Assembly (NCBI GenBank): GCA_017403065.1
Contig: JAFQOT010000002.1
Location: 62,001 to 126,000 of the forward strand
Origin: Clostridia bacterium
GTDB lineage: Bacteria; Bacillota; Clostridia; Oscillospirales; Acutalibacteraceae
Direction of reading: 5' to 3'
Length of the DNA: 64,000 nt
The translations under genes were made by a program, and so were the position numbers. This document shows positions 30,606-32,772 of the stretch, one piece after another; position 1 is the stretch's first letter; the number at the start of each line of letters is the position of its first letter. Under the pieces are notes generated by a model. It did no database searches, was not told where the DNA came from, and worked only from the letters and a program-made list of their open reading frames with translations.

Positions 30606-31286
30606 TTATACCACCACATAAAATAAAATAGCTATAAACTGCAAAAACGAGCCTATTACTACAAATATATGAAATACTGAATGCATATATCTTACTGTTT
30701 TTCTGCCCGCTATTCCATAAAGCACCGCGCCTATTGTATATGCAATTCCTCCTGCCAAAAGCCACATAAAGCCCTTAAAGCCGATAGCCTCTATAGCGGT
30801 TTTTCCGGTAAGTATTATACACCAGCCCTGAGCTAAATAACAAATTATTGAAAATACATTGTACTTCTTTAAATCTATTGCATTAAGCGTAATGCCTAAG
30901 GCAGATATGCCCCAGACCACTCCGAAAACTGTCCAGCCTAAAGCGGTATTATACTCCCTTAAAGATGTAAGGGCTATGGGTGTATATGTGCCTGAAATAA
31001 GGATAAAAACGCTGCAATGGTCAATAACCTGCATTACCTTTTTTCCCATTGTAGATTTTAGCCCGTGGTATACGCTTGATACGGTGTATAGTATTATCAT
31101 AGAAAATCCGTAGATAAATGAGCCTACAATCTGATATGCATCCCAATTTATAAAGGATTTTATAACACATAAGGCGCAAATTATTACTCCTAATCCACCC
31201 CCTACAATATGAGTGACCATATTAAAAATTTCCTCTCCCCTTGTGTAATCGGGGAGCTTTCTGTCTATTAGCTTGGTTCTTCTCAT
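30606..31286 (-). CDS. TrhA/hemolysin III family membrane protein (PAQR-like)
   Basis: A seven-helix membrane protein of 226 residues. The start at 31286 (MRRTKLID) has GGAGG four bases upstream; the longer open frame lacks one. The family motifs EEIFNMVTHIVGGG in helix 1, SSVYH in helix 3, and the paired histidines near the C-terminus (MHSVFHIF) form the metal-site pattern of PAQR-type proteins. Homologues are linked to membrane lipid homeostasis in bacteria; the old hemolysin label is not well supported. Confidence 0.88.
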   Translation of the reverse strand: MRRTKLIDRKLPDYTRGEEIFNMVTHIVGGGLGVIICALCVIKSFINWDAYQIVGSFIYGFSMIILYTVSSVYHGLKSTMGKKVMQVIDHCSVFILISGTYTPIALTSLREYNTALGWTVFGVVWGISALGITLNAIDLKKYNVFSIICYLAQGWCIILTGKTAIEAIGFKGFMWLLAGGIAYTIGAVLYGIAGRKTVRYMHSVFHIFVVIGSFLQFIAILFYVVV

Positions 31287-31557
31287 CTTGCCTCCGGATA
31301 AAATAAAACAAATGTCGAAAATTGTCAAAACAATTTACATAATTTCTTGTTTGTGATTATTATGTAACTCGAATTTTTCCACTTATTAACGGACTTATCC
31401 ACCGAAAATTGCCTGAAAAACACCATTTTTCAAGGGGACAAACTCCAAAACGGTGGATAACTTAGTGGAAAATGTGAAAAATTTTTTTAGGTTTACTTAG
31501 TTTACATAACCACGATTTTGTAAAAATTCAGGTAATTTTAACCAATTAGTAAAAACC
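31287..31557. other. Non-coding AT-rich stretch with DnaA-box-like inverted cluster
   Basis: No gene fits here. On the plus strand TTTTCCACT (31375-31383) and TTATCCACC (31395-31403) are mirrored by GGTGGATAA (31452-31460) and AGTGGAAAA (31464-31472), forming two facing pairs of DnaA-box-like 9-mers. TTATCCACC differs from the classical TTATCCACA only in the last base. TTACATAA occurs at 31335-31342 and 31502-31509, and inverted at 31360-31367. The region sits just left of the point where gene direction flips. DnaA binding is inferred from sequence only. Confidence 0.5.
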
Positions 31558-32772
31558 CTAATGTTTAAGCAGTTTTTCCATAATTTCGGGTCCGTGGGAT
31601 ATAAAAATTCCTGTACTCTGAGCGTTTTCCTCGGTGAAACAATCTACACCCTTTTCTTCCCTCGAACTATCATATATCATAAAAGGAACAGGATATGACG
31701 AATGGGTCTTTGTTTCTAACGGTGTAGGATGGTCGGGCATAATTAAAACACGGTAATCATCTGCAGAAGAATCCAGATATTCAAGAATAGGCTTTAAGGA
31801 ACGGCTGTCAATAAGCTCAATAGCCTTAACCTTATTTTCAGCTTCTCCTCTGTGACCGCATTCGTCGGGAGCTTCAAAATGAAGATATACTAAATCCGCT
31901 CCGTCCTTAAAGCTTTGTATAGCAACATTAGTTTTTGCTTCAAAATCAGTATCAATATAGCCTGTAGCCCCTGAAACCTCAGGAGTCTGCATATTAGCGC
32001 AAATGCCAATTCCTTTAAGTAGGTCAACCGCGCTTACTACCGCTCCCTTTACACCGTTTTTAGCAAAGAAATCCTCAAGCTGCGGCTTTCTTCCCTCGCC
32101 CCATAGCCAGATTGAGTTAGCCTCGTTAAGTCCCTTTGCTCTGCGGGCAATATTTACGGGATGGTCCTTTAAAATATTATAGCTCTTTTTCATTAAATCA
32201 ATCAAAGGCTTTGCATTTTCGCTTTTACTAAGATACGGTCCCACAACCTTTCCGCTTATATCGTGGGGTGGGGTCATTTCACCTAAATCGGTTGTTCCCC
32301 CGTCTACAACAAGACAATGACGGTAGCTTACACCTGAGTAAAACTTATATATATCATTGCCTAATTCCTTTTCTATAGTTTTAATAATCTCGTTAGCTTC
32401 CTTTGTAGATATATCCCCCGCGCAATAGTCGACCATTTTTTTATCCTCATATTTTTCCTCTTGCGACAGGGTAACTATATTACAGCGCAAGGCTACGTCG
32501 GTATCCTTTAAATCAACGCCGATAGATGCCGCCTCTAAAGGTGAACGGCCGGTATAGCATACCATAGGGTCATATCCCATAACCGAAAGATTAGCCACAT
32601 CGCTTCCGGGCTTTAAGCCCTCAGCCACCGTTTTACACATACCCACCCAAGCTTTTTTTGCCAATTTATCCATATAAGGCTTGTTAGCACATTCCATCGG
32701 TGTTTTGCCGCCTAAAAATTTTTCATTATGTGTATCTGCCATACCGTCACAAAGTAAAACCAAATATTTCAT
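31558..32772 (-). CDS. apgM: Cofactor-independent phosphoglycerate mutase (ApgM type)
   Basis: Interconverts 3- and 2-phosphoglycerate without 2,3-bisphosphoglycerate. It has 404 residues, the length of the archaeal-type (ApgM) branch, with an alkaline-phosphatase-like fold. The N-terminal LLCDGMAD aspartate, SDVANLSVMGY nucleophile region with the serine near 60, and the C-terminal IMPDHPTP metal motif are visible. Some clostridial homologues are annotated as homoserine kinase-like because the two families are close. It is a single gene with a near-consensus promoter. Confidence 0.9.
   Translation of the reverse strand: MKYLVLLCDGMADTHNEKFLGGKTPMECANKPYMDKLAKKAWVGMCKTVAEGLKPGSDVANLSVMGYDPMVCYTGRSPLEAASIGVDLKDTDVALRCNIVTLSQEEKYEDKKMVDYCAGDISTKEANEIIKTIEKELGNDIYKFYSGVSYRHCLVVDGGTTDLGEMTPPHDISGKVVGPYLSKSENAKPLIDLMKKSYNILKDHPVNIARRAKGLNEANSIWLWGEGRKPQLEDFFAKNGVKGAVVSAVDLLKGIGICANMQTPEVSGATGYIDTDFEAKTNVAIQSFKDGADLVYLHFEAPDECGHRGEAENKVKAIELIDSRSLKPILEYLDSSADDYRVLIMPDHPTPLETKTHSSYPVPFMIYDSSREEKGVDCFTEENAQSTGIFISHGPEIMEKLLKH

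What the first reader, a model, noticed from the sequence alone, without database searches (positions are those of the whole stretch)
31334..31509. Inverted DnaA-box-like cluster at a gene-direction switch
Seen: two facing pairs of 9-mers (TTTTCCACT plus TTATCCACC, then their mirror) within 98 bases, flanked by TTACATAA copies, in a 271-base AT-rich gap with no gene. Genes from 10.5 to 32.8 kb run left (one small exception) and those from 32.9 to 44.5 kb run right, which is the pattern around a replication origin or a replication-linked site. Known: DnaA boxes are TTATCCACA-like. Inference: an origin, an auxiliary DnaA-binding (titration) site, or a DnaA-controlled promoter region for the TrhA gene.
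Basis: partly seen in the sequence, partly recalled or inferred. Interest (0 to 1): 0.62.

Follow-up and report, generated by a model that had tools for sequence, protein, structure and literature searches.

The report
Conserved off-origin DnaA-binding array
The spot is a real, evolutionarily conserved cluster of likely binding sites for the replication-starter protein DnaA that lies away from the chromosome's origin, probably a control site for the timing of DNA replication in a group of uncultured gut Clostridia, and it is paired with a second motif whose protein is unknown.

Summary
It is not the chromosomal origin: GC skew switches at dnaA on another contig and the window's contig is net negative throughout.

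The site is one copy of a conserved intergenic element; 64 of 70 genomes of the genus carry one strong copy. Two inward-facing three-box DnaA arrays (offsets about 9 and 12 bp), about 50 bp apart, lie between two direct TTATGTAAA repeats 164-167 bp apart. Flanking genes differ between species, so it is not just a trhA promoter. A second, syntenic element lies beside a DUF6062 gene. The bare three-box array occurs in 58 of 295 genomes of the order (reversed-pattern control: 0), beside dnaA in six and off-origin in most. Arrays are enriched 35-fold for nearby TTATGTNAA, which resembles the XerD arm of dif; viral arrays are not.

Best reading: an off-origin DnaA-binding regulatory site that works like B. 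subtilis DnaA-box clusters or E. coli datA/DARS, with an unidentified partner factor. DnaA binding is inferred, not measured.

The parts
31302..31510 (-). whole conserved element I (read in the trhA direction)
   Evidence: R1 model match, 130 bits, E 1.9e-38 (the window is one of the 13 training copies); 64/70 genus genomes with a strong copy
31500..31509 (-). TTATGTAAAC, trhA-distal partner repeat
   Evidence: nearly invariant in 55 copies
31334..31342 (-). TTATGTAAA, trhA-proximal partner repeat, 167 bp from the first, same direction
   Evidence: spacing 164-167 bp in 55 copies
31453..31481 (-). array 1: TTTTTCAC (31474-31481), TTTTCCAC (31465-31472), TTATCCAC (31453-31460); start offsets 9 and 12 bp
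   Evidence: alignment A1
31375..31402 (+). array 2, facing array 1: TTTTCCAC (31375-31382), TTATTAAC (31383-31390), TTATCCAC (31395-31402); start offsets 8 and 12 bp in the window
   Evidence: alignment A1
31403..31452 (.). spacer between the arrays: length kept, sequence not conserved
31313..31329 (+). tandem Spo0A-box-like TGTCGAA (31313-31319) and TGTCAAA (31323-31329)
   Evidence: consensus TGTCGAA from PMC5295017
31300..31328 (-). sigma-A-like promoter for trhA, TTGACA-17-TATTTT, overlapping the Spo0A-like boxes
   Evidence: consensus match only
30606..31286 (-). trhA (HlyIII family) gene downstream in this genome
   Evidence: PF03006; start from homologues
31558..32772 (-). apgM-type phosphoglycerate mutase gene upstream in this genome
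   Evidence: PF10143 and PF01676

Best explanation
The site is an off-origin DnaA-binding regulatory element. Shown from sequence: two facing three-box arrays of DnaA-box-like sites with fixed spacing, between two direct TTATGTAAA repeats about 166 bp apart, kept as one copy per genome across the genus while the neighbouring genes change; the same three-box array is used beside dnaA in other families of the order. Inferred: DnaA loads cooperatively on each array, the facing arrays form one nucleoprotein complex, and this complex holds DnaA away from oriC or changes its state, which tunes when replication starts. A second, unidentified protein binds the TTATGTNAA sites and modulates the complex. 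Simple titration with a timing effect is the default; datA-like inactivation or DARS-like reactivation cannot be told apart from sequence.
For: Clustering beyond chance. One strong copy in 64 of 70 genus genomes, repeat spacing 164-167 bp in 55 copies and 165-167 bp in the 13 copies not selected on spacing. Neighbour genes change while the element stays. The 3-box pattern has 73 exact matches in 58 of 295 genomes of the order and 0 for the reversed pattern; it lies beside dnaA in G044, G334, G269, G190, G118 and G150. The box variants equal those in the genus's own dnaA-dnaN gap. A second syntenic element of like design in 18 relatives. TTATGTNAA enriched 35-fold beside arrays chosen by boxes alone, controls 0-0.7-fold. 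No skew switch at the element.
Against: No DnaA binding data. Outer boxes are weak matches. In the genus the element is not demonstrably close to dnaA: same-contig pairs equal chance, so an oriC-proximal role is not shown there. More than half of the off-origin arrays in the order lack an exact TTATGTNAA.
Confidence: 0.68

Rival explanations
1. A promoter/operator region: DnaA (and perhaps Spo0A) controls transcription of trhA, and the conservation reflects gene regulation.
For: Element ends just before trhA in the window; a promoter-like TTGACA-17-TATTTT overlaps Spo0A-box-like sites at its edge. DnaA is a known transcription factor (PMC4447404).
Against: Relatives carry the element beside other genes, often with a convergent gene downstream; trhA homologues of many relatives lack it upstream.
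Confidence: 0.08
2. A replication origin: the true oriC or a backup origin.
For: Inverted DnaA arrays in A+T-rich DNA; the dnaA-dnaN gap of the genus has only two or three boxes.
Against: Sustained skew switch is at dnaA; none at the element in own genome or in G083 and G065.
Confidence: 0.05
3. Primarily an Xer/segregation site: TTATGTNAA is bound by XerD or another tyrosine-recombinase-type protein (as XerD unloads SMC at the terminus in B. subtilis), and the DnaA arrays are secondary.
For: TTATGTAAACT equals the XerD arm of Firmicutes dif (from memory), F. alni dif ends TTATGTCAAGT (PMC3025954); 35-fold enrichment beside arrays. XerD as SMC unloader is cited in PMC12322038.
Against: No XerC arm or 6-bp centre; no canonical dif in 60 relatives, none in a looser scan or in the G044 terminus region; elements are not at the terminus where position is known (14-63 kb from dnaA in three genomes).
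Confidence: 0.1
4. The box-like sites are bound by another protein, not DnaA.
For: Outer boxes depart from the DnaA consensus.
Against: The same array lies directly beside dnaA in six genomes, and the dnaA-dnaN gap of the genus uses the same box variants.
Confidence: 0.05

Closest known systems
B. subtilis oriC-proximal DnaA-box clusters (DBCs; Okumura et al. 2012, as described in PMC5295017 and PMC13220808)
   Same: DnaA-box clusters outside oriC in a Firmicute, thought to bind DnaA and restrain initiation
   Different: The clostridial element has a fixed architecture (facing 3-box arrays, 9/12-bp offsets, paired TTATGTAAA repeats) and is single-copy with changing neighbours; effect on initiation not tested
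E. coli datA
   Same: Intergenic off-origin DnaA-box locus with spacing under selection and an auxiliary protein site (IHF) (PMC4585315)
   Different: No IHF site recognised; box number and layout differ; DnaA-ATP hydrolysis not tested
E. coli DARS1/DARS2
   Different: Here the three boxes point the same way with abutting 9-bp and 12-bp offsets and the array is doubled in mirror image; nucleotide exchange not tested
XerD arm of dif
   Same: TTATGTNAA matches XerD arms (F. alni TTATGTCAAGT, PMC3025954; Firmicutes TTATGTAAACT from memory)
   Different: No XerC arm or 6-bp centre; copies about 166 bp apart; no canonical dif found in the order
Spo0A boxes at B. subtilis oriC (PMC5295017)
   Same: TGTCGAA beside DnaA boxes
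   Different: Only 4-fold enriched beside arrays in the order; position differs between subgroups

Membership tests
Off-origin DnaA-box cluster (DBC-like) | Several DnaA boxes clustered outside oriC | tested here: met
   Four strong and two weak boxes in 107 bp, away from the skew switch at dnaA
Off-origin DnaA-box cluster (DBC-like) | Conserved beyond chance in relatives | tested here: met
   64/70 genus genomes with a strong copy
Off-origin DnaA-box cluster (DBC-like) | Close to oriC | tested here: inconclusive
   14, 41 and 63 kb in G069, G028, G089, but on different contigs in the rest; same-contig number equals chance; 7-63 kb for arrays of nine genomes in other families
Off-origin DnaA-box cluster (DBC-like) | Bound by DnaA; removal advances initiation | not testable with these tools
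   needs binding and deletion experiments
Chromosomal oriC | GC-skew switch at the site | tested here: not met
Chromosomal oriC | Adjacent to dnaA/dnaN | tested here: not met
   dnaA is at G000:C14:13224-14579
E. coli datA / DARS | IHF or Fis sites and known DnaA-ATP hydrolysis or ADP release | not testable with these tools
   no assay; no such sites were sought
dif site | XerC arm, 6-bp centre and XerD arm in 28 bp | tested here: not met
   no XerC arm beside the repeats
Spo0A-controlled origin-type site | TGTCGAA boxes, and Spo0A present in the genome | tested here: inconclusive
   Boxes at 31313-31329; a Spo0A query had no significant hit in the 0.54 Mb of own sequence held, less than half of the genome

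The most novel reading that the evidence does not exclude
A two-part chromosomal control site of an order of gut Clostridia: rigid DnaA arrays physically coupled to binding sites of an Xer-type protein or another unknown segregation factor, so that the initiator and the segregation machinery meet at one off-origin locus; a Gram-positive functional counterpart of datA/DARS.
Probability: 0.13. Interest if true: 0.78.

Novelty: new variant of a known kind. Interest (0 to 1): 0.55.

Why it matters
In Firmicutes the control of DnaA by sites outside oriC is poorly understood; a 2026 review states that B. subtilis lacks datA and DARS and that regulators of the DnaA nucleotide state there are unknown (PMC13220808). 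A single-copy element with fixed geometry, kept while its neighbours change and built from a module shared by many families of gut Clostridia, gives a defined sequence to footprint, delete and move. The strong association with TTATGTNAA points to a second protein that could be found by pull-down; if it is an Xer protein it would link initiation control to chromosome segregation.

Tried and rejected
(1) Chromosomal origin: rejected by skew in own genome and two relatives. (2) trhA promoter as the main role: rejected by changing neighbours. (3) dif: a Firmicutes-like dif with 3 mismatches gave nothing in the own genome and two unconvincing 3-mismatch hits in 60 relatives; a looser pattern in 41 genus genomes gave control-level counts; the G044 terminus region gave nothing better than 8 mismatches. 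The XerD link stays a resemblance. (4) TTATGTAAAC as a genome-wide regulator motif: 20 sites against 5 for the reversed pattern, but most others lie in unrelated contexts. (5) Fixed short distance to dnaA in the genus: not supported. (6) Conserved orientation relative to the leading strand: not conserved. (7) Spo0A gene: no hit in the part of the own genome held. (8) Rfam families around relatives' elements: nothing at the element.

Full report
OBSERVATION. Window 31287-31557 is a 271-bp, 70% A+T gap between trhA (PF03006) and an apgM-type mutase gene (PF10143), both running left. Four TTWTCCAC sites lie in 98 bp as two facing pairs, flanked by two direct TTTACATAA copies. In 300 first-order Markov simulations of the window no 100-bp stretch held more than two such sites.

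NOT THE ORIGIN. dnaA lies on another contig, G000:C14:13224-14579; the reading frames after it look by eye like dnaN, recF and gyrB. Skew switches from negative to sustained positive there for over 120 kb. The contig holding the window is net negative from end to end, and its positive patches follow gene direction. Contig C13, which holds a related element, is also net negative. In two relatives the skew does not change sign across the element.

CONSERVED ELEMENT. trhA homologues of 60 relatives gave upstream sequences; those of twelve relatives align to the window site with conserved boxes, and the two TTATGTAA copies are 165-167 bp apart in all. A sequence-only model (R1) finds one strong copy (E below 1e-10) in 64 of 70 genus genomes, only weak matches in 4 and none in 2. 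The 13 training copies match by construction; the rest are independent. A scan of 84,980 species genomes for TTATGTAAAC-N6-AAC-N143-152-TTATGTAAA gave 56 hits. Fifty-two are gut Clostridia MAGs (titles Clostridia, Oscillospiraceae or Ruminococcaceae; one 'uncultured bacterium'), and R1 matches them; the other four (two Levybacteria, Methanosarcina, Nostoc) have no R1 match and are taken as chance. In 55 copies the repeat spacing is 164-167 bp.

ANATOMY, read in the trhA direction: TTATGTAAAC, about 20 bp with a conserved AACC, array 1 (three boxes, start offsets 9 and 12 bp), about 50 bp of unconserved spacer, array 2 in mirror orientation, about 30 bp, TTATGTAAA, then in the trhA group TTTCGACA (a Spo0A-box-like TGTCGAA on the other strand). 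In another subgroup TTTTTCGAC sits in the spacer instead.

NEIGHBOURS CHANGE. The element lies between apgM and trhA in some species. In others it follows a phosphodiesterase-like gene with three small ORFs, or precedes murD or unrelated and often convergent genes. It is therefore a site in its own right, although a promoter-like sequence for trhA overlaps its edge in the window.

A SECOND ELEMENT. Own C13:70222-70377 holds a related arrangement (TTTACATAA copies, GTGGATAA boxes and GTGGAAAA, a short spacer, GTTATCAAC, TTGTCGAAAA, TTATGTAAAT) beside a DUF6062 gene (PF19538). The same arrangement lies in the same gene context in 18 relatives. L179, from another family, is also near the DUF6062 gene, as are five array loci (L288, L297, L301, L302, L303).

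THE ARRAY MODULE IS ORDER-WIDE. The pattern TTNTCNACNTTNTCNACNNNGTTNTCNAC has 73 exact matches in 58 of 295 genomes of the order, in many families, and none for the reversed pattern. In six genomes it is beside dnaA: upstream in G044, G334 and G269, just 3' of dnaA in G190, G118 and G150. Most other copies are off-origin. Where dnaA is on the same contig the distance is 7-63 kb in nine genomes and 180 kb in the closed genome G044; several of these genomes belong to one genus and are not independent.

PARTNER MOTIF. In 43 arrays chosen by the boxes alone, TTATGTNAA is 35-fold denser within 200 bp than beyond 400 bp, while four altered-letter controls show 0-0.7-fold. It is beside 18 of 40 off-origin arrays, 0 of 3 arrays at dnaA and 1 of 22 viral arrays. 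Typical order: TTNACATAA, array, TTATGTNAA. In two loci of another genus of the same family (L290, L291) the copies are direct and 171-173 bp apart, as in the window's element. TTCGACA is only 4-fold enriched. TTATGTNAA resembles the XerD arm of dif (F. alni TTATGTCAAGT, PMC3025954; Firmicutes TTATGTAAACT, from memory), but no canonical dif was found in these genomes. The partner protein is unknown.

MECHANISM. Presence of one and the same array both at dnaA and off-origin, the rigid spacing and the single-copy conservation make a DnaA-binding regulatory site the best explanation. Facing arrays suggest one cooperative complex. Titration of DnaA is the simplest effect; datA- or DARS-like action is possible. 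None of this has been measured.

LIMITS. Nearly all relatives are metagenome assemblies, so contig breaks limit statements on position. In the genus the number of genomes with dnaA and the element on one contig equals chance (2 seen, 1.67 expected in 41 genomes; a third, G069, lies outside that list). No DnaA, XerD or Spo0A binding data for these species were found.

Noticed in passing
Own genome G000:C13:70222-70377 (L034, L275): A second conserved DnaA-array element with TTTACATAA/TTATGTAAAT flanks and a Spo0A-like box beside a DUF6062 gene, syntenic in 18 relatives.
   Followed up: partly
IMG/VR contigs L380-L401: 22 viral contigs carry the same rigid three-box DnaA array but almost never the TTATGTNAA partner (1 of 22); some have 10-12 boxes in 400 bp and may be phage origins.
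   Followed up: partly
dnaA-dnaN gap, L032 7580-7769 and relatives L130-L151: The gap holds only two or three boxes, two of them commonly about 138 bp apart; a sparse oriC.
   Followed up: partly
60 relatives, G044:C1:1300001-1700000: No canonical Firmicutes dif was found in this order; the dimer-resolution site may be diverged.
   Followed up: partly
Own genome G000:C1:129708-129756 (L033 1208-1256): Two TTATCCAC sites 41 bp apart in A+T-rich DNA near a contig end; not the same architecture.
   Followed up: no
L112-L123, upstream of the element: A recurrent operon of three small unannotated proteins (about 80, 115 and 115-130 aa; no Pfam family for the last two) next to a phosphodiesterase-like gene.
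   Followed up: no
G004:C45:2626 and G004:C36:89384: This genome shows two dnaA genes; assembly mixture or a true second copy.
   Followed up: no
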